From: a virus
Reading direction: 5' to 3' (one strand)
Length of the DNA: 64,000 bases
IMG/VR virus record: IMGVR_UViG_3300027806_000035
Location: 1 to 64,000 of that record
Part shown: positions 45,081 through 54,748 of the stretch, piece after piece
How positions within the stretch are numbered: position 1 is the stretch's first letter
Layout of the letters: the number at the start of each line of letters is the position of its first letter
Translations under genes and position numbers: made by a program
The notes under the pieces: model-generated
What the model was told of the DNA's origin: nothing
Databases searched by the model: none
Seen by the model: only the letters and a program-made list of their open reading frames with translations

Positions 45081-45488
45081 TCACTTTACAAAACGGCGAA
45101 AGTTGAACTTTGGCAGTCCGGGAGTTGTAAGAGGAAGCCAAACAACACCTTTCCTTGTGTGAATTGTAACGACACCAAGATTGCCGCTATTTTCAAGTAC
45201 CGTAGAGATCCCGAGCTTTGGGTGTCCGCCGGCTCCCCTGTTCCGCGTCATTGCTACACAGCCCTGCTCAACAACATCAGTTGGACAGGTGTGATGATTC
45301 CAAGCCGTCTCCAGTGAACCCCAGAGTCCAGCAGCGGCCATGTCCATCCAACGAGGATCAATCTCTGGCCTGTAGATTCCGGCTTCATCGAGAAGGGTGA
45401 AACAGAGGAGCAAGCAATCTGCGGCTTTTCCTTCTTTCGGGTCAGCCCAGAACTCATGCTTCAGTCCAAGATACTGATGAAGGCTCAT
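45081..45488 (-). CDS. NlpC/P60-like tail assembly protein (K-like)
   Basis: A 135-residue protein starting MSLHQYLGLKHEFWADPKEG. KAADCLLLCFTLLDEAG has the Cys in an ADC context, and HPKLGISTVLENSG is a likely His motif, as in NlpC/P60 peptidases and lambda gpK. The position between the L-like and J-like genes fits lambda order. Catalytic assignment is by pattern only. Confidence 0.6.
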   Translation of the reverse strand: MSLHQYLGLKHEFWADPKEGKAADCLLLCFTLLDEAGIYRPEIDPRWMDMAAAGLWGSLETAWNHHTCPTDVVEQGCVAMTRNRGAGGHPKLGISTVLENSGNLGVVTIHTRKGVVWLPLTTPGLPKFNFRRFVK

Positions 45489-45973
45489 ACGGAAATGGTT
45501 CCAGATGTTGGCAGCGCTCCCACAAGCGACTGTGAAAGCGGTCTACCACCAACTGTAGCGTTGACAGTATCAAGTGGACTGGCAAGCTGAAGAACAGATT
45601 GACCCGGCCTGCCCATCTCAACCGCACCCTCAACCCTGCAGGACCACAGCATCTTGGTCAGCTGCGTAAGTTCTTGATCGGTTTCAGTGTCAATCTCTAC
45701 TGAAGTTACCTCAACCAGCCACTTACTGGAGTCCGCTTGCCAGAAGATGTTTTGGACAAGGGTGTTGGCTGGACATACGATCGCACCCCTGCTGCGTTCT
45801 CCGCCCTGCTTGCCGCCACCACCAGAAACGCCAAGAGGGGCAAAGTCGTAATCAACTCCACCGTAAGTGCGCGTTTCGTTAATGAAATAGTTTTGGTACG
45901 CATAGGGGAGGTAGCCCCCTCCCCCGCGTTCCTTGAAGCGGATGTAGCTGACAATTGCGAATTCCCCTTTCAC
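45485..45973 (-). CDS. Minor tail protein L-like (162 aa)
   Basis: It starts at GTG 45973 (MKGEFAIVSYIRFKERGGGG). The product has YLPYAYQNYFINETRTYGGV, a glycine-rich patch and a beta-rich C-terminus (MLWSCRVEGAVEMGRPGQSV). It lies immediately after the TnpB element in the coding direction and before the K-like gene, and corresponds in position to lambda gpL. Sequence similarity to L itself is not clear. Confidence 0.5.
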   Translation of the reverse strand: MKGEFAIVSYIRFKERGGGGYLPYAYQNYFINETRTYGGVDYDFAPLGVSGGGGKQGGERSRGAIVCPANTLVQNIFWQADSSKWLVEVTSVEIDTETDQELTQLTKMLWSCRVEGAVEMGRPGQSVLQLASPLDTVNATVGGRPLSQSLVGALPTSGTISV

Positions 45974-45977
45974 TGAA

Positions 45978-46010
45978 TCAGAGCCCCAGGCGCTTACGTG
46001 TCTTCATGCT
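45978..46010 (-). repeat. Outer copy (relic) of the tape measure 3' end
   Basis: On the minus strand these 33 bases read AGC ATG AAG ACA CGT AAG CGC CTG GGG CTC TGA and encode SMKTRKRLGL-stop. The tape measure gene ends with the same ten residues at 47348-47380. Only the first three codons are identical; the next seven and the stop all differ. This is the interrupted original end, left on the far side of the TnpB element. Confidence 0.85.
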
Positions 46011-46049
46011 TTGACTTCCAGCCACCATACAGATGGTAGCCTCCTTCTA
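46011..46049 (-). ncRNA. Candidate 3' part of a TnpB guide (omega/re) RNA
   Basis: Directly after the tnpB stop the minus strand has AAGGAG, an 8-base hairpin (GCTACCAT and ATGGTGGC, 46040-46021, one G-U pair) and TGGAAGTCAA ending at 46011. IS605-type omega RNAs end in such a hairpin and short conserved sequence, and the guide is the flanking DNA that follows. The guide would then begin at 46010, the first base of the tape measure relic. The 5' part of the RNA would overlap the end of tnpB; its start is unknown. Confidence 0.5.
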
Positions 46050-47255
46050 CGCTGTGCATGGGAATGCCTCAGCGATCGGGTGGGTTGACGCTTCACAGCC
46101 TGCCGCCACCGAAAGGGTGGACTGATGCACGGCTCCACGCCCGTTTTGACTCTCCGCCAGTCCGGCGGCGAGGATGTTCAAAGCAGCGTTGATGTCGCGG
46201 TCGTGAACCGTTCCGCAACTCGGGCACTGCCACTCCCGAATCGACAGCTCTTTCTTGCCGTCGTGATGGCCGCAAGCTGAGCAGACCTGACTGGTAGGGA
46301 GCCATCGGTTGATGACAACCACCTGCCTGCCATATTGCTCAGCCTTGGACTCCAGCAGAGCCCTGAACTGCCGCCAACCCGCATCGGCAATCGAGCGGGC
46401 CAGCTTCTTGTTCTTCAGCATCCCCGAAACGTTCAGGTCTTCCAGCACCACCGTTTGGTTTTCACGGATGATGCGGGTCGAGAGCTGATGCAGGAAGTCG
46501 AGGCGCCGATCAGCAGCCTTGGCGTGCAGCTTGGCTACCCTGCGTCTAGCGAAAGCCAGACGGTTAGAGCCCTTTTCCTTGTGCTTCAGGTTGCGCTGCA
46601 GCCGCCGCAGCCGCTTAAGCGCCGAGCGCAGAAACCTCGGCGGAGCAATCTTTTTGCCATCTGAGGTAACGGCGAGGGATGTCAAGCCCAAGTCTATGCC
46701 AATCACTTTGCCGTTTTTCGGCATTTGACTTGGCTCGACTTCTACAACAAAGCTTGCGAAATAACGTCCGCTGGAATCACGAATAATTGTGACACTGGTT
46801 GGCGATGACGGCAGTGAGCGACTCCAAATAATTGGCACTGAACCAATTTTTGCAAGAATCAAACGATTATTTTTTACGCGAAATGCATTGGATGTAAAAC
46901 GAGCTGACTGGGTGCCGCACTTTTTCTTGAAGCGCGGCGGGCCAACCCCACTGCCCCTGCGCTTTCCTTTTAGGCTATTCCACCAATTACGATAGGCTCT
47001 GTCAAGGTCGCGCACAGACTGCTGAAGTATCGTATTACTTGGTTCGGCAAGCCACTTTCTTTCAGGAGTCTGCTTCGCTTGAGTAATGCAAAGCTTGGCT
47101 AAAATTGGATAGGTAACTTTTTGACCAGCACTGTATAGCTCGCGGCTTTTGGCTAGAGCGTCATTCCATACAACGCGAGCGCAGCCAAAGGCCTTGCCGA
47201 TCGCACCTATTTGGTGCGGGTGTGGATACAGGCGAAACCGGTAGCGTCGCTTCAT
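46047..47255 (-). CDS. tnpB: RNA-guided nuclease TnpB (IS200/IS605 family)
   Basis: A 402-residue, full-length TnpB. N-terminal [20 protein letters not shown], then Ruv[13 protein letters not shown] (D188), Ruv[14 protein letters not shown] (E272), zinc-finger pairs CSAC (325-328) and CPSC (344-347), and Ruv[18 protein letters not shown] (D352/D354). All catalytic and zinc residues are present. TnpB is an RNA-guided DNA endonuclease that cuts targets next to a short motif. The first ATG lies 6 bases after an extended -10 box. Codon use resembles the GC-rich parts of the phage. Confidence 0.93.
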
Positions 47256-47261
47256 CAGTCA

Positions 47262-47270
47262 ATTATACCA
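47262..47270 (-). promoter_or_regulatory. Extended -10 element before tnpB
   Basis: TGGTATAAT on the minus strand (47270-47262), a perfect TATAAT with an upstream TG. The start of transcription would fall at or near the tnpB ATG (47255), so the message may be leaderless. No convincing -35 box is seen. Confidence 0.5.
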
Positions 47271-47347
47271 CGCGGGGCCACTCCTACCCACCCCCGGCTT
47301 CCCGTCGCCTTGGCGTATGGTCGCTTAATTGCCCGACAAGTATATAA

Positions 47348-47380
47348 CTACAGGCCGAGTCGTTTTCTGGTCTTCATGCT
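47348..47380 (-). repeat. Inner, recoded copy of the tape measure 3' end
   Basis: On the minus strand this reads AGC ATG AAG ACC AGA AAA CGA CTC GGC CTG TAG. It encodes the same SMKTRKRLGL-stop as the copy at 45978-46010, but with a different codon at every position after Lys. Over the last eight codons 14 of 24 bases match. Confidence 0.85.
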
Positions 47381-50300
47381 ATCGGCAAGTTCACGAATCG
47401 TCTGGTTCCGGGCCACCTTAGCAGTACGGGCATTAGATGCCTCAAGCTGCTCGGGAGTGACGAAATCGTACTCGTTGACGCGAGTGGTTTCGTACTTGAT
47501 CGGAGGCAGTTCTTTCGGGCTGCTGGTGACACGCTCCAGTCGGTCGATCTCCCTGGTCGTTTCACTCCGCTGATACGGAACGGCCCGACCATAGTTGCCG
47601 GTGTAGATGGTGTCACTAGATTCACCATCACCGCTCTCCATGCTGCTCGCGGCGCGACGGGTATAGCGGCCGATCGAAGGGGCACTGCCGCCCTTGTCGT
47701 CAAGGCCGGGGACGTACAGCTCGTCGTTGGGAATGATCGTGCCTGGGCGGTCGGGAACCCACAGCTCAGGGCCGTTCTCGCCGATGATCGCCGGGTCGTA
47801 GGGATCAGGGCGACCGCCCGAGGCATAGCCAGGCAGGCCGAGGTTGCCGAGGTTGAGCATTTCGCCGGTAAAGCCGGGGAGCGACGACTTCGGCTTGCTG
47901 CCAAACAGACCTGACAGTCCACCGCCAGCGCCAAACATTCCAGTGATAGAGCTGATGGATCCGAAGATTGAAGCTGCACCCATCAGGGTGTTGTAAGCCC
48001 CGCCCTTGCGGATCATCTGAGCGCCGCCAACGCCCATCGCGATGCTGCTGATCGCTTGCAGGCCGATGCCAACTGTTTTCTGGAACTTGGTGACAGAATC
48101 TGACATCTGAGTGCCGAGATCCTGAACGCTATCTGTCGCTTGCGCGGCTGCCTGGCCAAGCTGACCCAGCGATTCGGCCGTCTGATTTCCAGCTGCAGTA
48201 GCGGGACCATAGGCAGCGCCAACAGCCTCGCGCATTGCATCGTAAGCCTCAAGCATTCTCCTAGCATTTTCCTCAGCATTGAACTGAGGAGCTGGCTGAA
48301 CCTGGGACACAACAGAGCCAATTTCGGAAAGAAGCTTGCTGGTGATCGCAGGGTTTAGGCCGGGCTCTCTGCCTGGGCCGTGGAAGAAGTTCTGCCCCTC
48401 GGCTCGCAGGAAGTCGCCCTGCATCATATTGCCGTACTGGCTAACGCCTTTGAAATACAAGCGGCCATTGATGTCCTTGATCGACTGCTCAAGAAGTGCG
48501 GGATCAAGAAGCTCGGCCTTGACCTTGTTGAACAGGTCGGCGCCGTAACGATTTGGATTGACGACTTGGGCGCGACTCAGGCCAAAATTTGGTGCATACT
48601 GGCCGGCTTGGGTTACGACATCCACCAGATTCGATGGATACTGACCGGAGCGTGAGCGGCTGAGGATGTTCGCGAAAACATCAGTTCTGCCCAGCGGATC
48701 GGATCCACCATATTCGCCAATTGCAGTATTGACTGCAGCCGCAATTTCTTCATCCGTAAGACGCAGCGCCTCCTTGATGCTTCTGCCGGTCATCGGCAGA
48801 TCAGGCCCGCCAACGCCCGTGAACTGTCCAGTTGCTCCACTGGACTGAGCGTCCCGATACCACTGACCGCTCTTGGGGGGCTCCGTTGCCGGCGACCTGC
48901 CGCCTGGACCTGGGACAATCCCGTTCGCGGGAGCCGTGGCCGGGGCCGGAGTGGCGCCGCGAGCCGCCGCAGCCGCAGTCTCAGCCTTTTTGACAAGTTC
49001 AATGGCAGCCTGAAGAATCTTGTCGGTATTGTCCTTGACAGCAGTAATTGGCTGAAGCAGGGGGTTCTGCTCAGGTTTGATGCCTAAGACATCGGAGAGA
49101 TTCTTGAACAGCTGATCCTGCAGGGGGCGCAGCGTAAACTCAAGGAGGACATCAAGAGTCCGATCTGCAACGCCTTCAGCGAAACGCTGAACAGATTCCA
49201 GCAGGTTCCCGCCTTTCAGCAGTTCTTTATTGAGCTGGATAAACGAGTCGGTCCAGCCACTTGCAATATCCCTAAGTCCATTAAGAACCTTGAGCTTGGC
49301 ATTCAAGTTGTCAAGCGCTTTTGCGTTTCTGAGGATTTCCTCCTCCTGTCTTGGGTTGATGCCAAGCCCGCCACGGCTGTTGATGATTTGCAGCCACTTA
49401 TCATATTCGCTGACAGGGAGCAGGAGCGCAGAAATCTCACCCCTCGCCTGAGTAATGGAGTTGCTGAGCTGGTCGTTTGACTGGGTGTAAAACTCAATTG
49501 TTGGCCGCAGCTTTTCAAACTCGACAGTAACTTTTTCCGCAGTGGCAATTAAGCCGAGCAGTTCGGGTGTCAGCTTGAAATCTGGCCGCCTTGCAAGAGA
49601 GCTGACAAGGCTTGTGTAAGAGCCTTGAATGACGCCGATGGCAATTGAGAAATCGTCTGCGACAAGGCCAAGTGCCTTCCTGGATCTAGTAAGAGAGTCG
49701 TCAAGCTCTTTGAATGGACCGGTGGCAAGATCGCTTATGCGACCAATAAATTCATTGAAGTTGCCAGCCTGACCAGAATTGACAAGTGAAGTTTCAAGGT
49801 CGAGCAGGGTCTTCTGAAGCTGATCCCCGCGTGCCACGGCCTGCGTTACGCCAGCAGTAGAAACACTCCGAGTGGAGACAGACGGAATCTCCCTGAGCTT
49901 TGGAGGAGCCTTTGTTGTCTCAATCGCTTTCAGGTTTTCGCCCGCGAGCTTCAGATTTTCTGTGATGTTGTCGAAGATTGTTTGATTTGCCGTGAGTACG
50001 TCTTGATAGACCTGCTTGCCAGGATTCTCCTTCGCATTGACCTTTGCGCTTTCAAGGAAGCTGCTCTGCCTTGCCTGCATGACAAGGAGTTCGTTCTTGA
50101 TAACCTCTGCCTTAAGCGAGGCAATTTTCTTTTCGGCTTCAAATGTATTCAGGGCCGCATCTTCGTTTCTGCGTGCAACGCTTCTGTTGATCTCCTGAAT
50201 TTTTTCGGCGGTGCTGATATTCAGGTCCGAAACCCTCTTGGCAACCTCGGCCTTGTACTTTTCAAGCTCAACCTGTTGGTTGCTAATCGCAATCTCAAAC

Positions 50301-53300
50301 TGCTTACGGCGTTGCTCGATCTGATCCTGGGCCGAAAGCTGAGCGCCAAGGTAGGTGGTTACAGCGTCCGCAAGGCTTTGCGCAAGCTCGTCGCCAGCCA
50401 GCTCATTGCGAACCTCAAGCGCAGCATTCTTAAACTGCTGCTCCCTGATCTGACCCTGCTTGACAAGGATCTCAAGCTCTTTCTGGGCGTTTTCTTGACG
50501 AAGCTGGGAGATCCTGTCTTCAACGCCACGGCGAATATCCTCGATCTGCTTTTCGTAGTCACGACGCAGCTCAAAGGACTGACGATCAAGATCTTCCTGC
50601 TCGCGCTTGATGGCGTTGGCTTGTTGCTTGAAGCCCTTCAGGATGTCCGCTCCTTCGTTCCGCTTATTGAATACTTCGAGATCGCGTTGAGCTGTGTCGC
50701 GGCGGGTTTCTGCGTCCCTGATCGCCTTGTCGCGTTGCTCCTGTGGCTTGAGCTGTGGCGCAGGAGTGGATCTTACAAGTCCAGCGGTGATTTCAGCCAA
50801 ATCTTTAGTCGGAATCCCAAGAATTGAACCAGCTCCACCGCCTCCAAGCGGGCGGCCAATCAACCTCTCAAGAAGTCCAGATCCCCTTGGTGCGCCTGCT
50901 TTTTCAGCGGCAGCCTGCAACTGCCTGTTTGCAGCCGCTCTAGCTTCTGGTGTGGCTGCAGCAAAGGCATTCTCAAATCTTTTTTCCGTCCCGCTTCTCT
51001 CCAGTCCTGATGCAATAGCATTCAAGATGTCAGTAAGCGGCCCAGCAACAAGAAGCTGGATCTGTACGCCAAGGTCGGCCATTGCACGCTTCAGGCGATC
51101 ACCAGCATCAGCGGCTTCACGAAGCTTCGTAGCTCCATCGACCCCGAGCTTGTTATTCAGTTCACCCTGGATAATCGAGTAGGCAGCGGTCTTATTCCCA
51201 GCCTCAATCAGATTGCCAATCAGCTTTTCCTGGCCACGGCTTGCAAGCAGGCCGGAATCCTTGATCTGCTCAAAGTTGCCGACCAGATCACGCAGCATGT
51301 TGCCGGTGTCCTGGGTCGCCTGCATCAGCATGTCCACCTGGGAGCCGATCGCCGTGCCAGCAAGCGACAGGCCGAAGCCCAGCGTGCCGCCGGCCAGGCC
51401 ACCGAAGAAGCCGCCCAGACCGCCACCAGCAGCGGCTCCGGCGCCCTGACCGAACAGGAGGGGGAAGGCGCCACCGATCAGGCCTTCCCCGACCGCCTGG
51501 CCGCCTCTCTGGCCGAACCTGCGGGTCAGGAAGTCAGCCCCGGTATCCCGGCGAGCAATCTGGTCGTCAACCTTGTTCAGAACTTTGGTCAGCTGATCAA
51601 AGCTCGCGTCCGTCATCTTCACGCCTTCGCGTGTTTCAGACAGCGCCTGAGACAGAAGCTGCAGCTGCTTGATGCTGGCGCCTGACATATCAGCCAGATC
51701 CTTCAGGCCAAGAAGCTGATCAGCATTGCCGCGAGCAGCATTTACGCGGCCCTCAAAGTCGCCAGGATCCGGTCCGGCAGGAGGGGCTGGAGGATTCGGC
51801 CCACGACCGCCGCCGCCAGCAGACCGAACAGCGGAAGAGGTGAAATTGGCAGCAGATTGAACGCTGAGCGCAAAGTCGCGAATCGGCTTTGTAGCGGAAT
51901 TCAGTGCTTGCTGCAATTTTTCAAGCGGGGATCCAATAGCGGCACCGGCTTCGCTACCAAGGGTCTGCGTCTTACCAAAAGCAAAGATTGACGAAAGCGG
52001 TGATCCAATGCCGCGCCCCTGAATCTGATTGGCGGAAAACAGGGGATTAGAAGGTGGAGCGCTCTGAAGAGTTGGTAGCTTACCGCGAATTCTTTGGTCG
52101 CGACTCATCAGAATACCAGGGTTCAGAATTGATGACTCGCCCGCTTGTCCGGCAACCGGAGACATGGGTGCCGTTACGAACCTGGCAGAGCTGAACTTGT
52201 TGGCACTCTTGACGAAGGCGTCATCAATCTGCTTTTCAAGAAGCCCCGGAAGGTTCCTGAAAATTCGCTCAAGCTTCATTTCCGGGAATACGTCCTGGAA
52301 CGTACCCCTTGCGCTCGACTCCCTCAGTATTTCGGTTGGGAAGTTCTGGAGCCCAACCGCATCAATTCGCCTTCTGTATTTAGCCGAATCAATTGTCAGG
52401 TCAGCAATGGATTGCGAAAGTGTTCCATAGTTAGCTCCAAGGCTCGGACGCTTCACCGCAAAATCAAACTGACCTGCGATTCCAGTCTGCGGATTTCTAG
52501 TAGGAAGGTTTAGGGAGGCAGTCGCTATGCCCTCTCTTGCCGTTTTAACGGCTTTCCCAACTGCATTCGCGCCAGCACCAAAGGCCTTGCTGAAGGCCGC
52601 TTCAATAGCAGAAGTACCCTGCTCAAGCCTGCTAGTAGTGGCATTGATGATGTCACTGATTAGCATAAGAATGAACTTGGGAGGGCTGTTCCTGCCAAAG
52701 ACCTTATTGATCGCTTTTGTTGCAGCAGACGCAAACTTGGTTGCCGCCGCAGCAGCGCTGGATGAACCGCCGGCAAGCTTGTCGGCAAAAGTGCTTACAA
52801 CGCTCGCGCCAGTTTCAGCGGCGCCAGAGACTGCGCCCTTGAGGCCGCCAGCACCAGTTCCTGTAGCTTTCCCGCCAACAGAAGCGTTGAACGCACCGAT
52901 GATGTTGCTCAGGGCTTGCTCGCCACTGCGACCGCCACGGAAGACCTTGGCGGCAGTGTCTGCACGTCCGAGATCACCAAGAATCGAGGTCAGGGTTCCG
53001 GTATCGCGCTGCTGCCCACGGCCAAGCCTTTTTGCAAGCTGCTCGGATGCTTTTGACTCAGCCTGCGCATTGGCCGCTCTTTGCTTCTCTAGCGCAAGCA
53101 GTTGCCTTGTTCCGTTTAGCTCTTCATCAAGAATATCCAGGCTCTTCGCGGAAATCTCAAACGTATCAGCCTTTGCGGCATTGAGTGTATTTTGGAGCTT
53201 GACAAGGGTGTCACCAATCTCAACGCCTTTTGCCTGCGCTCCGGCAAGTTTCTCCTGCAAAAGGAGGCCAGAGGCGAGGATGTTAGCGAGTCGCTTTGGC

Positions 53301-54748
53301 GCATCAATTGGTGAGACGTCAGTGGTTCGGATATTTGAAGGCCTGATTTGTCCAGCCTGGCCGGCTCCAGCCTTGGTGGACACTCCACTGGAAAGCTCCT
53401 CCACCTGAGCTAATGCACTTCTCCAGTTTATTCCCTTTGCTGCAAGTTTCTGCGCCTCAGTTACTGGCGTTGGCGTTCCACGTCTATTCAGGCGCTCAAG
53501 CGACATTCGCTGGCGGTCAATTTCAGCTGTCTGACGCTTCGAGGCCGTTAGATCCCTTTCGGCAAGCGAGGAAGTTGCCTTGTCAAGCTTTTGGCGAAGC
53601 TCAAGTTTTTGGTTTTGACTGAGAAATGCTTGGTCAACACGAGTCTCAAGAGCCGCAATTCGATCAAGCTGCAGTTCAATCTTATCATAGTATCCCTGCT
53701 TCTTGATGATTGATTTCGGATCATCAAGCCTGGAGGCAGGGCCAAGCTGCGGCTGAATCTTCATACTTTGGCCACGCAGGCCAAATCCGCTCATTTCCTC
53801 GCGAACAGATGCAATCCGCTCCTCAAGAGCCCGGTACTCATTGGAGATAACAGGAACAAGAGAGCGCAGTCTTTCTAGGTAGCCAAGGTATGAGTCCATT
53901 GCGGCCTCGCTTCTTGTCACCGTGTCACCCATTGCAAGCGCGGAAGCAATGAGCTTGCGGGAGCCGGCAAGATTGGCTTCTGATGTACCTTGACCAAAAT
54001 TTTGACGCTGAGCCTGAGGAGATAAACCAAAGGCGATAGCCCGAAAGCGTTGCTGTTCGGCTTCTGCGAGCTTCTTGTTCGCCCCCTCTACGGCAACACT
54101 GAATCTATTGAAATCGGCAGACGCAATTTTAACGTTATTTGCAACCAGCGAAAGAGCGGATGCCTGCTCTTTGAGCTGACTTATGCTTGCGTCAAGGCCT
54201 ACGTCTTTGCCAAGCCCGCCAGTTACGAGTTTCTTGCGGAGATCTCCAATGCGGAGATAGGCATCAGCAAGGCCCTGAAGCGCGTTTACGCTTGCCTGGT
54301 TTTTCATGGCAAGGCCAAGGGCTCTGTTAAGCCCGATCGCCCCGGTCTGGGCCTCCCTCTGCCTCTGTGTTAGCTGGGCTGTTTTGCTGTTGAGTTCATC
54401 AATAGCGCTGGCCGCGTCAAGAATATCTTGCTGTAACTTTTTATAGGTTTTTGTTTCTGGATTTTTCAGTCTTGACAGTCTTTGCTGCGCCTTTTCGATT
54501 TTATCAAAGTTTTTTTGAATTTCAGCTCCAGCCCCAGCAATACCCTTTCCAGCATCGTCCGAAATACGGTTAAGCGCAGTCATGCTTGACTGCAGCTTTT
54601 CCACATCACGCACAGCTCTTGACGCGGATACGTCCAGCGGGGAGCTATTTAGCCTATTAACAATGTCGTCAAGCTTGCTAACTCTTTCAATCAGCCTGTC
54701 AACAGCTGAGCGGCCAGTTACCAGAAGGTCAATTGAAGCGCCAGCCAT
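47348..54748 (-). CDS. Tape measure protein with embedded cell-wall hydrolase domain
   Basis: A 2,466-residue protein starting MAGASIDLLVTGRSAVDRLI. Long Ala/Gln/Glu/Lys coiled-coil regions and several hydrophobic segments (GGFFGGLAGGTLGFGLSLAG near 1100) are typical of tape measures. Around residues 1985-2140 a SleB-like hydrolase domain occurs: LTDEEIAAAVNTAIGEYGGS, VFANILSRSRSGQYPSNLVD, TQAGQYAPNF. Near the C-terminus is GENGPELWVPDRPGTIIPND. The hydrolase probably opens peptidoglycan during DNA entry. The last residues (SMKTRKRLGL) are encoded by the recoded copy at 47348-47380. Confidence 0.92.
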   Translation of the reverse strand: MAGASIDLLVTGRSAVDRLIERVSKLDDIVNRLNSSPLDVSASRAVRDVEKLQSSMTALNRISDDAGKGIAGAGAEIQKNFDKIEKAQQRLSRLKNPETKTYKKLQQDILDAASAIDELNSKTAQLTQRQREAQTGAIGLNRALGLAMKNQASVNALQGLADAYLRIGDLRKKLVTGGLGKDVGLDASISQLKEQASALSLVANNVKIASADFNRFSVAVEGANKKLAEAEQQRFRAIAFGLSPQAQRQNFGQGTSEANLAGSRKLIASALAMGDTVTRSEAAMDSYLGYLERLRSLVPVISNEYRALEERIASVREEMSGFGLRGQSMKIQPQLGPASRLDDPKSIIKKQGYYDKIELQLDRIAALETRVDQAFLSQNQKLELRQKLDKATSSLAERDLTASKRQTAEIDRQRMSLERLNRRGTPTPVTEAQKLAAKGINWRSALAQVEELSSGVSTKAGAGQAGQIRPSNIRTTDVSPIDAPKRLANILASGLLLQEKLAGAQAKGVEIGDTLVKLQNTLNAAKADTFEISAKSLDILDEELNGTRQLLALEKQRAANAQAESKASEQLAKRLGRGQQRDTGTLTSILGDLGRADTAAKVFRGGRSGEQALSNIIGAFNASVGGKATGTGAGGLKGAVSGAAETGASVVSTFADKLAGGSSSAAAAATKFASAATKAINKVFGRNSPPKFILMLISDIINATTSRLEQGTSAIEAAFSKAFGAGANAVGKAVKTAREGIATASLNLPTRNPQTGIAGQFDFAVKRPSLGANYGTLSQSIADLTIDSAKYRRRIDAVGLQNFPTEILRESSARGTFQDVFPEMKLERIFRNLPGLLEKQIDDAFVKSANKFSSARFVTAPMSPVAGQAGESSILNPGILMSRDQRIRGKLPTLQSAPPSNPLFSANQIQGRGIGSPLSSIFAFGKTQTLGSEAGAAIGSPLEKLQQALNSATKPIRDFALSVQSAANFTSSAVRSAGGGGRGPNPPAPPAGPDPGDFEGRVNAARGNADQLLGLKDLADMSGASIKQLQLLSQALSETREGVKMTDASFDQLTKVLNKVDDQIARRDTGADFLTRRFGQRGGQAVGEGLIGGAFPLLFGQGAGAAAGGGLGGFFGGLAGGTLGFGLSLAGTAIGSQVDMLMQATQDTGNMLRDLVGNFEQIKDSGLLASRGQEKLIGNLIEAGNKTAAYSIIQGELNNKLGVDGATKLREAADAGDRLKRAMADLGVQIQLLVAGPLTDILNAIASGLERSGTEKRFENAFAAATPEARAAANRQLQAAAEKAGAPRGSGLLERLIGRPLGGGGAGSILGIPTKDLAEITAGLVRSTPAPQLKPQEQRDKAIRDAETRRDTAQRDLEVFNKRNEGADILKGFKQQANAIKREQEDLDRQSFELRRDYEKQIEDIRRGVEDRISQLRQENAQKELEILVKQGQIREQQFKNAALEVRNELAGDELAQSLADAVTTYLGAQLSAQDQIEQRRKQFEIAISNQQVELEKYKAEVAKRVSDLNISTAEKIQEINRSVARRNEDAALNTFEAEKKIASLKAEVIKNELLVMQARQSSFLESAKVNAKENPGKQVYQDVLTANQTIFDNITENLKLAGENLKAIETTKAPPKLREIPSVSTRSVSTAGVTQAVARGDQLQKTLLDLETSLVNSGQAGNFNEFIGRISDLATGPFKELDDSLTRSRKALGLVADDFSIAIGVIQGSYTSLVSSLARRPDFKLTPELLGLIATAEKVTVEFEKLRPTIEFYTQSNDQLSNSITQARGEISALLLPVSEYDKWLQIINSRGGLGINPRQEEEILRNAKALDNLNAKLKVLNGLRDIASGWTDSFIQLNKELLKGGNLLESVQRFAEGVADRTLDVLLEFTLRPLQDQLFKNLSDVLGIKPEQNPLLQPITAVKDNTDKILQAAIELVKKAETAAAAARGATPAPATAPANGIVPGPGGRSPATEPPKSGQWYRDAQSSGATGQFTGVGGPDLPMTGRSIKEALRLTDEEIAAAVNTAIGEYGGSDPLGRTDVFANILSRSRSGQYPSNLVDVVTQAGQYAPNFGLSRAQVVNPNRYGADLFNKVKAELLDPALLEQSIKDINGRLYFKGVSQYGNMMQGDFLRAEGQNFFHGPGREPGLNPAITSKLLSEIGSVVSQVQPAPQFNAEENARRMLEAYDAMREAVGAAYGPATAAGNQTAESLGQLGQAAAQATDSVQDLGTQMSDSVTKFQKTVGIGLQAISSIAMGVGGAQMIRKGGAYNTLMGAASIFGSISSITGMFGAGGGLSGLFGSKPKSSLPGFTGEMLNLGNLGLPGYASGGRPDPYDPAIIGENGPELWVPDRPGTIIPNDELYVPGLDDKGGSAPSIGRYTRRAASSMESGDGESSDTIYTGNYGRAVPYQRSETTREIDRLERVTSSPKELPPIKYETTRVNEYDFVTPEQLEASNARTAKVARNQTIRELADSMKTRKRLGL

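What the first reader, a model, noticed from the sequence alone, without database searches (positions are those of the whole stretch)
45978..47380. TnpB element flanked by two synonymously recoded copies of the tape measure 3' end
Seen: the tape measure gene ends SMKTRKRLGL-stop at 47348-47380. The same ten residues and a stop occur again at 45978-46010 on the other side of the tnpB element. The first three codons (AGC ATG AAG) are identical. The next seven sense codons and the stop all differ: ACC/ACA, AGA/CGT, AAA/AAG, CGA/CGC, CTC/CTG, GGC/GGG, CTG/CTC, TAG/TGA. The protein sequence is unchanged. Known: TnpB is an RNA-guided nuclease whose guide derives from DNA beside the element, and homing systems often restore the gene they enter while changing the target. 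Inference: the element acts like a homing element that carries a recoded gene end, so tape measure function is kept and the chromosome carrying it is not cut.
Basis: partly seen in the sequence, partly recalled or inferred. Interest (0 to 1): 0.93.

Follow-up and report, generated by a model that had tools for sequence, protein, structure and literature searches.

The report
RNA-guided homing element restoring its target
In a virus that probably infects cyanobacteria, a small RNA-guided DNA-cutting gene sits inside the last codons of a long tail gene, carries its own re-spelled copy of those codons so that the tail protein stays whole, and appears to use the displaced original codons as the guide to cut virus genomes that lack it; four other phage-like sequences show the same layout.

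Summary
SMKTRKRLGL-stop occurs on both sides of a lone tnpB with every codon from the fourth on spelled differently. All six informative relatives without tnpB have one copy, spelled like the outer one, with the next gene 3-4 nt beyond it. So the outer copy is native and the inner copy is the replacement carried by a 1370-bp insert. The element's right end (..GGAAGTCAA) stops at the first base of the outer copy, so the predicted TnpB guide is the displaced native gene end. tnpA and the usual left end are missing; tnpB and its RNA hairpin look maintained. A survey of 140 distinct TnpB loci gave five with this layout: four restore a 3' gene end (one of them weak), one, in opposite orientation, a 5' end. 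Each restored end has at least one mismatch to its own guide within the first 12 nt. Best reading: an RNA-guided homing element that brings a replacement for the gene end it displaces, as mitochondrial mobile ORFs do with protein nucleases. Cutting, homing and immunity are untested. Changes beyond the guide suggest that the replacement may be foreign rather than recoded stepwise.

The parts
47348..54748 (-). tape measure gene (2466 aa) whose last 10 codons and stop are supplied by the insert
   Evidence: ORF; six empty relatives end in the same 10 residues, M or L at the second; weak local matches to phage tape measure proteins; no PHROGs match
46011..47380 (-). the whole insert, 1370 bp, absent from six relatives
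47381..47385 (-). CCGAT, TAM position 5' of the insert (CTGAT in 5 of 6 empty relatives, CCGAT in L012; at 7 distinct left ends of related elements: TTGAT 4, CTGAT 2, TTGAC 1)
47348..47380 (-). inner, recoded tail SMKTRKRLGL-stop: replacement gene end carried by the insert
   Evidence: among IMG/VR contigs this spelling was found only in 3300027793_000339
47256..47347 (-). leader of tnpB; no canonical left end seen; -10-like TATAAT at 47262-47267 read by eye (not listed by the consensus scan)
   Evidence: comparison by eye with left ends of L003, L005, L036, L037, L053
46047..47255 (-). tnpB, 402 aa, no internal stop; HTH_OrfB, OrfB_IS605 and Cas12f1-like TNB domains; D188/E272/D354 (RuvC roles recalled)
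   Evidence: dN/dS 0.12-0.16 against four relatives (ratios of the values)
46011..46135 (-). 3' part of the omega RNA scaffold; its first 85 nt keep 73-77 of 85 identities to three relatives
46020..46041 (-). terminal 9-bp hairpin of the omega RNA, 9 of 9 pairs in the window, with both-side changes at 6 of 9 pairs against L003/L005
46011..46015 (-). GTCAA, last bases of the right end, as in the related elements
45991..46010 (-). predicted 20-nt guide AGCATGAAGACACGTAAGCG, the start of the native gene end
45978..46010 (-). outer, native tail: the displaced original 3' end of the tape measure gene
   Evidence: same place and spelling type in six of six empty relatives
45485..45973 (-). next gene (162 aa, unknown function), 4 nt after the native stop as in the relatives (3-4 nt)
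   Evidence: phrog_25799, unknown function

Best explanation
The insert is a transposase-less, IS605-derived TnpB element that behaves as an RNA-guided homing element. It entered the tape measure gene between the Asp and Ser codons, directly behind a TAM-like motif, and displaced the native last ten codons to its far side, where they serve as the guide (shown by comparison: position, boundaries, native identity of the outer copy). Its left edge is a replacement gene end with the same amino acids and different codons, so the tape measure protein is complete (shown by sequence). On co-infection TnpB should cut genomes with the uninterrupted gene end, and repair from the carrier should copy the insert, guide and replacement end included (inferred). 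The carrier should escape because the replacement end behind the TAM mismatches the guide at positions 12, 13, 15 and 18 behind a weak TAM (inferred). Four other phage-like TnpB loci show the same anatomy, one restoring a 5' end because the gene runs the other way; the replacement lies on the left-end side in all five, as expected if the right-end side must keep the native sequence as guide.
For: Native outer copy in 6 of 6 informative empty relatives. Eight related copies read individually end in GTCAA before unrelated sequence; a pattern search that itself requires G[AT]CAA gave 12 related copies with 12 different guides. So the guide is the displaced tail. TAM-like CTGAT in 5 of 6 empty relatives, also at 2 of 7 related left ends. 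No Y1 transposase in the window's 86,446-bp record nor in the 6 records tested for the other cases. tnpB open, with catalytic motifs, dN/dS 0.12-0.16. RNA hairpin kept by both-side changes at 5-7 of 9 pairs against each of the 12 copies, 10 of which form 9 of 9 pairs and 2 form 8. Recurrence: stop-anchored scores 166, 70, 65, 49 against a maximum of 34 in 3000 unrelated pairs; start-anchored 109 against 37 in 2000. At least one guide mismatch within nt 1-12 in 5 of 5 cases. Precedent in fungal mitochondria: PMC3630166 (passages). TnpB gene drive in plasmids: PMC11870625 (passages).
Against: No cutting, RNA or cross data. Dra2 TnpB is reported to use only the proximal 12 nt of the guide (PMC10278001, passages); the inner copy matches 11 of those 12, so protection may rest on one position plus a weak TAM. 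CCGAT differs from the commonest TAM TTGAT at two positions. Six of the ten changes (positions 21-33) lie beyond a 20-nt guide. The six known empty relatives have 1-4 mismatches to the guide, so no perfect natural target was seen. Only one phage population was found with this insert. L166 is a weak case: its two ends differ at 1 of 42 nt and resemble each other past the stop. The first structure count, on a gapped alignment, gave no support for the hairpin (the gap misplaced the window's stem).
Confidence: 0.8

Rival explanations
1. Foreign-tail model: the same homing anatomy, but the replacement end was carried in from a distant phage's tape measure gene that shares the conserved SMKTRKRLGL end; the different codons reflect divergence, not selection by the guide. 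(A statement on the origin of the recoding; compatible with homing.)
For: Changes run to the stop codon, beyond the guide, and start abruptly at nt 12; a random draw from codon usage gives 8 of 8 differences with probability 0.025, not negligible; in L179 the two ends are only 74% identical in protein and 107 of 165 nt, dS not computable, as at saturation; mitochondrial precedents have foreign ends (PMC3630166, passages).
Against: No donor: a scan of IMG/VR for [ML]KTRKRLGL-stop in any codons found 8 contigs, all of this phage group, and the inner spelling only in the window's population. Other collections were not scanned for it.
Confidence: 0.5
2. Ordinary TnpB transposon insertion near a gene end; the repeated tail is a target-site duplication or chance.
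For: The right end and guide layout are those of IS605 elements; mycobacteriophage QuickMath has a TnpB element at its tape measure stop codon without any repeated tail.
Against: IS200/IS605 elements are not known to duplicate target sites (recalled); a duplication would start identical, yet 10 of the last 22 nt differ, all synonymous; tnpA and the canonical left end are missing; five loci exceed the unrelated pairs.
Confidence: 0.06
3. The element is a domesticated competition or regulatory device: TnpB binds or cuts the tape measure gene of competing phages mainly to poison them rather than to home.
For: The target is the conserved end of a long virion gene; a phage intron endonuclease is known to act by interference competition (PMC11620839, passages); partial matches such as the inner copy could be bound without being cut (PMC12803034, passages).
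Against: A replacement end with the native flank kept is what a homing element needs; the RuvC catalytic motifs are intact, unlike TldR-type repressors (TldR properties recalled).
Confidence: 0.2
4. Recoding mainly prevents recombination between the two 33-nt repeats (loss of the insert) rather than self-cutting.
For: After recoding the longest shared run is 11 nt; this would explain changes beyond the guide.
Against: L166 keeps nearly identical copies, 41 of 42 nt.
Confidence: 0.2

Closest known systems
Mitochondrial mobile ORFs (mORFs) with C-terminal duplications: Allomyces macrogynus atp6; atp6, atp9, cox2, nad3 of Glomus sp. (PMC3630166, passages read)
   Same: Nuclease gene inserted in a gene's 3' part; brings a replacement C-terminus in frame; native C-terminus displaced beyond the nuclease gene
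   Different: LAGLIDADG or GIY-YIG protein nucleases, mitochondria; here an RNA-guided TnpB whose predicted guide is itself the displaced native end
IS200/IS605 TnpB elements (ISDra2 type) and TnpB gene drive in plasmids (PMC11870625, passages read)
   Same: TnpB family, right end followed by guide, TAM at the left, expected attack on copies without the element
   Different: No tnpA and no canonical left end; a replacement gene end occupies the left edge
IStrons (PMC4227781, passages read)
   Same: IS-type element whose insertion into a gene is made harmless
   Different: IStrons repair by RNA splicing; no group I intron reached Rfam's gathering score in the window
Engineered home-and-rescue gene drives (PMC7968924, search listing and start of abstract only)
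   Same: Guided nuclease plus a rescue copy of an essential target gene (recoding as the means of guide escape is recalled)
   Different: Engineered in Drosophila with CRISPR/Cas9; here natural and viral
Phage intron endonuclease gp210 of PhiPA3 (PMC11620839, passages read)
   Same: Mobile nuclease that attacks a gene of a co-infecting phage
   Different: Intron-encoded protein nuclease, not RNA-guided, no replacement gene end reported in the passages read

Membership tests
IS200/IS605 TnpB (RNA-guided nuclease) | OrfB_IS605 and TNB domains with RuvC catalytic residues | tested here: met
   Pfam matches over cut-off; D188, E272, D354 invariant in 9 of 9 aligned TnpBs (catalytic role recalled)
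IS200/IS605 TnpB (RNA-guided nuclease) | omega RNA scaffold ending at the right end, guide beyond it | tested here: met
   GTCAA boundary in 8 related copies read individually and hairpin shared with 12 copies with different guides, found by a pattern that requires the boundary; RNA itself not observed
IS200/IS605 TnpB (RNA-guided nuclease) | TAM 5' of the target | tested here: inconclusive
   CCGAT here, CTGAT in 5 of 6 empty relatives; related left ends TTGAT 4, CTGAT 2, TTGAC 1 of 7
IS200/IS605 TnpB (RNA-guided nuclease) | RNA-guided cleavage | not testable with these tools
   needs biochemistry
Autonomous IS605 transposon | Y1 transposase tnpA | tested here: not met
   PF01797 absent from the 86,446-bp record; the record may be incomplete
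Autonomous IS605 transposon | canonical left end | tested here: not met
   the left-end motif found at 7 related elements is absent from the window's insert by inspection
Gene-end-restoring homing element (mitochondrial mORF type) | replacement gene end in frame, native end displaced past the nuclease | tested here: met
Gene-end-restoring homing element (mitochondrial mORF type) | foreign origin of the replacement end | tested here: inconclusive
   no donor found in IMG/VR
Gene-end-restoring homing element (mitochondrial mORF type) | LAGLIDADG or GIY-YIG nuclease | tested here: not met
   the nuclease is TnpB
Homing element (functional sense) | transfer into an empty allele after cleavage | not testable with these tools
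   needs a cross between phages
IStron | group I intron | tested here: not met
   no Rfam family at gathering threshold in the window
TldR (TnpB-derived repressor) | inactivated RuvC site (recalled) | tested here: not met
   catalytic motifs intact

The most novel reading that the evidence does not exclude
Phages carry a recurrent class of natural RNA-guided home-and-rescue drives: TnpB elements that record the native gene end as their guide, supply a replacement end whose spelling has been selected to escape that guide, and restore a 3' or a 5' end according to their orientation in the gene.
Probability: 0.45. Interest if true: 0.95.

Novelty: new variant of a known kind. Interest (0 to 1): 0.87.

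Why it matters
It would show how a transposon nuclease can become a harmless resident of an important gene and a drive at the same time, without a transposase, an intron or an intein. It gives TnpB in phages a testable role, is a natural counterpart of engineered rescue drives, and offers a computable signature (same peptide end on both sides of a nuclease gene, native copy directly after the right end) for finding more. On print: my ten literature searches returned capped lists; among the listed titles, abstract starts and the passages I read I saw no TnpB element with a replacement gene end. Most listed papers were not opened, the lists were cut, and subscription papers and most preprints are not in that library, so this is not proof of absence.

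Tried and rejected
Donor of the inner tail: two IMG/VR scans, none found. Relatives of the tape measure C-terminus in named phages: 5 records, each matching only 10-12% of the query, useless for the tail. Target-site duplication: rejected, see rivals. Mycobacteriophage QuickMath TnpB at its tape measure stop codon: looked like a second tape-measure case, but the protein end is unchanged and no repeated tail was seen; an ordinary insertion that supplies only a stop codon. Similarity of the L179 gene and of the L218 gene in named phages: no match; plasmid homologs of the L179 gene: 24 records, all under 60% identity (28-36% in the rows listed), 24 of 24 matched over at least 80% of the query at one place. 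DNA of the L179 region against plasmids hit 671 records, but none covered 80% of the query and the places listed lay over tnpB or unannotated DNA. The L166 gene in plasmids: 319 records, of which 36 cover 80%; the listed matches stop before its last residues, so they say nothing about the tail.

Flank surveys. One search (450-nt flanks, no null; L179 and L209 not yet fetched) showed the window's element plus GC-rich noise of equal score. (exact runs of 7 residues or more, 126 distinct loci): 8 hits, null 24 of 4000 pairs that still held near-identical loci; L136, L179, L207 and L217 had runs of 7 and L226 of 10; only L002, L166 and L209 had 11 or more; 182 loci chosen (80, 9, 70, 16 picked by hand), 181 with TnpB, 140 after removing short and duplicate flanks; the window's population stands in as L002; L218 scored 34, equal to the null maximum, in that test and was recognised only on the opposite strand. 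(184 loci) was run without low-complexity filter and gave many spurious hits; L217, L183 and L173 there are paralogous genes or repeated elements away from the element ends and were not counted. One search kept the best 80 of 567 relatives and its list was itself cut, so 5 of 140 is not a population frequency. The first RNA structure counts used a gapped alignment that misplaced the window's hairpin; one search gave 50.6% paired cells, no support; the ungapped 3'-anchored count is. A first script used a pattern too narrow to find the relatives and a comparison off by one; one search replaces it. In 200 genomes drawn from the order of the nearest cyanobacterial MAG, 3 had a TnpB at E 1e-100 or better, which added little.

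Full report
Observation. The window holds, on the minus strand, a 2466-aa tape measure ORF ending SMKTRKRLGL-TAG (47348-47380), a 402-aa tnpB (46047-47255), and SMKTRKRLGL-TGA again at 45978-46010. The two 33-nt stretches share their first 11 nt and differ at 10 of the other 22, all synonymously. Between the window and its closest relative L012 the upstream 83 codons differ synonymously at 17 of 78 shared residues, so 8 of 8 changed codons is far above local drift (5e-6); it is less striking (0.025) if the codons were drawn freely from this phage's codon usage. Contig 3300027793_000339 carries the same structure, identical over the 13,197 bases compared; 3300027816_002554 carries the right half with one gap in 7,486 bases. 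The name 'tape measure' is not backed by PHROGs or Pfam; it rests on length, position and weak local matches.

Which copy is native. Searches with the tape measure C-terminus and with the downstream gene gave six contigs without tnpB that span the junction (L012-L017; 66-87% identity in their best matched segments). Three further contigs (L025, L026, L027) begin inside the downstream gene and are uninformative, and L019 belongs to the window's population. In 6 of 6 the gene ends ELADS[M/L]KTRKRLGL with outer-type codons, CTG GGG CTC TGA in all, and the next gene starts 3-4 nt after the stop. The empty site is therefore GAT|AGCATGAAG..., and the insert is 46011-47380.

What the insert is. The protein has HTH_OrfB_IS605, OrfB_IS605 and Cas12f1-like TNB domains and D188/E272/D354 at the RuvC positions (roles recalled); dN is 0.13-0.21 against dS 0.96-1.26 in comparison with four relatives, two from viral contigs and two from a cyanobacterial MAG. 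Eight related copies read individually end ...GTCAA followed by unrelated sequence, and a pattern search that requires this ending found 12 copies with 12 different guides. This places the guide boundary at 46011/46010: the guide is AGCATGAAGACACGTAAGCG, the start of the native tail. The last hairpin of the RNA is almost wholly different in sequence from the relatives but forms 9 of 9 pairs, with both-side changes at 5-7 pairs against each of the 12 copies. Seven distinct related left ends are preceded by TTGAT (4), CTGAT (2) or TTGAC (1); the empty relatives have CTGAT (5) or CCGAT (1) directly before the target. The window's insert lacks the canonical left end, and no Y1 transposase occurs in the window's 86,446-bp record, which has one TnpB. 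At its left edge, right behind the TAM position, sits the replacement tail.

Recurrence. I compared the two flanks of TnpB loci for a shared peptide end. Of 182 chosen loci, 140 were distinct with both flanks. Stop-anchored scores exceeded all of 3000 unrelated pairs (maximum 34) in four: L179 166, L166 70, L209 65, and L002, which is the window's population, 49. A start-anchored test on the opposite strand gave L218 109 against a maximum of 37 in 2000 pairs. L166 also scored 44 there, which is the complement of its repeated tail. In each case the copy on the right-end side begins exactly after the right end (GTCAA, TTCAC, TTCAA, TTCAA, TTCAC) and the copy on the left side completes an open reading frame.

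The four other cases. L209: a 70-aa gene end DIKTFVEETLE occurs twice, 5 differences in 36 nt, all synonymous; the outer copy also appears to hold the start of the next gene in another frame, and in the distant empty relative L237 (68% identity, no TnpB in its 22,551-bp record) the two genes overlap uninterrupted. L179 (and the same element in L181): 54 residues replaced, 74% identical, dS not computable, so the replacement is probably foreign; a small antisense ORF lies between it and tnpB. L166: an exonuclease-like gene end (KKV[S/A]HLIPFSNLA) with one difference in 42 nt, at guide position 10; similarity continues past the stop into a hairpin, so simple duplication is possible and this case is weak. 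L218 (six contigs, identical over the 1600 nt compared, so one population): the gene runs opposite to tnpB; the native first 30 residues lie beyond the right end and a replacement start, 64% identical over 28 residues, lies on the left side joined to the rest of the gene. No Y1 transposase was found in the six records tested for these cases; catalytic motifs are present in all five TnpBs (by pattern; L209 has GLDLG, seen). I have no close empty relative for L179, L166 or L218.

Mechanism. Shown by comparison: boundaries, native outer copy, guide assignment, completeness of the interrupted gene, recurrence. Inferred: TnpB cuts genomes with TAM plus native end; repair from the carrier copies the whole insert; the carrier escapes because its replacement end mismatches the guide. 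An exact replacement behind the TAM would recreate the target, and 5 of 5 replacements have a mismatch within the first 12 nt. In published work a 12-16 bp heteroduplex is needed for efficient cleavage and targets with mismatches beyond about position 8 are bound but not cleaved (PMC12803034, passages), Dra2 TnpB uses the proximal 12 nt (PMC10278001, passages), and on weak TAMs any mismatch within 15 nt sharply reduced editing by an archaeal TnpB (PMC11043419, passages). By these figures the window's mismatches at 12, 13, 15 and 18 with a weak TAM make protection plausible but not certain. The changes at 21-33 need another cause: foreign origin, or avoidance of recombination between the repeats.

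Comparison with known systems. The anatomy is that of mitochondrial mobile ORFs that bring a foreign C-terminus (PMC3630166, passages), with the protein nuclease replaced by TnpB. TnpB is already described as homing-endonuclease-like (PMC10278001) and as a gene drive in plasmids (PMC11870625). IStrons solve gene interruption by splicing (PMC4227781). I saw no report of a TnpB element with a replacement gene end in the searches listed under Why it matters, with the limits stated there. I rate it a new variant of a known kind.

Host. A cyanophage is likely: the nearest TnpBs in genome contigs lie in cyanobacterial MAGs, and two of the five weak tape measure matches are records of cyanophage KBS-S-2A. 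This is inference.

Noticed in passing
L209:2237-4608: TnpB inserted where two phage genes seem to have overlapped (70-aa gene and an epimerase-like gene); both stay complete because the 3' end of the first is duplicated with 5 synonymous changes.
   Followed up: partly
L218:2058-3787 (also L219, L220, L222, L224, L227): Opposite-orientation counterpart: replacement of the first 30 codons of a gene on the left-end side of a lone TnpB, native start beyond the right end.
   Followed up: partly
L179:1835-3864 and L181: Lone TnpB insert with a 54-residue diverged replacement C-terminus and a small antisense ORF (2232-2450, 72 aa) between the replacement end and tnpB.
   Followed up: partly
L143:900-2320 (QuickMath) against L142 (Gorge): TnpB element inserted at the stop codon of a mycobacteriophage tape measure gene, convergent, leaving the protein end unchanged; 15 of 356 matching records hold at least 80% of the query.
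   Followed up: partly
L203 and L204/L206, right ends: TnpB elements in different contigs share the first 15 guide nt, which suggests repeated use of one target site.
   Followed up: no
L249 (Staphylococcus phage LSA2311): TnpB lies between ORFs annotated as exonuclease, possibly a gene split by insertion.
   Followed up: no
window 45978-46010 and relatives: CTG GGG CTC TGA is the same in six relatives and the outer copy, perhaps because GGGG serves as ribosome site for the next gene.
   Followed up: no
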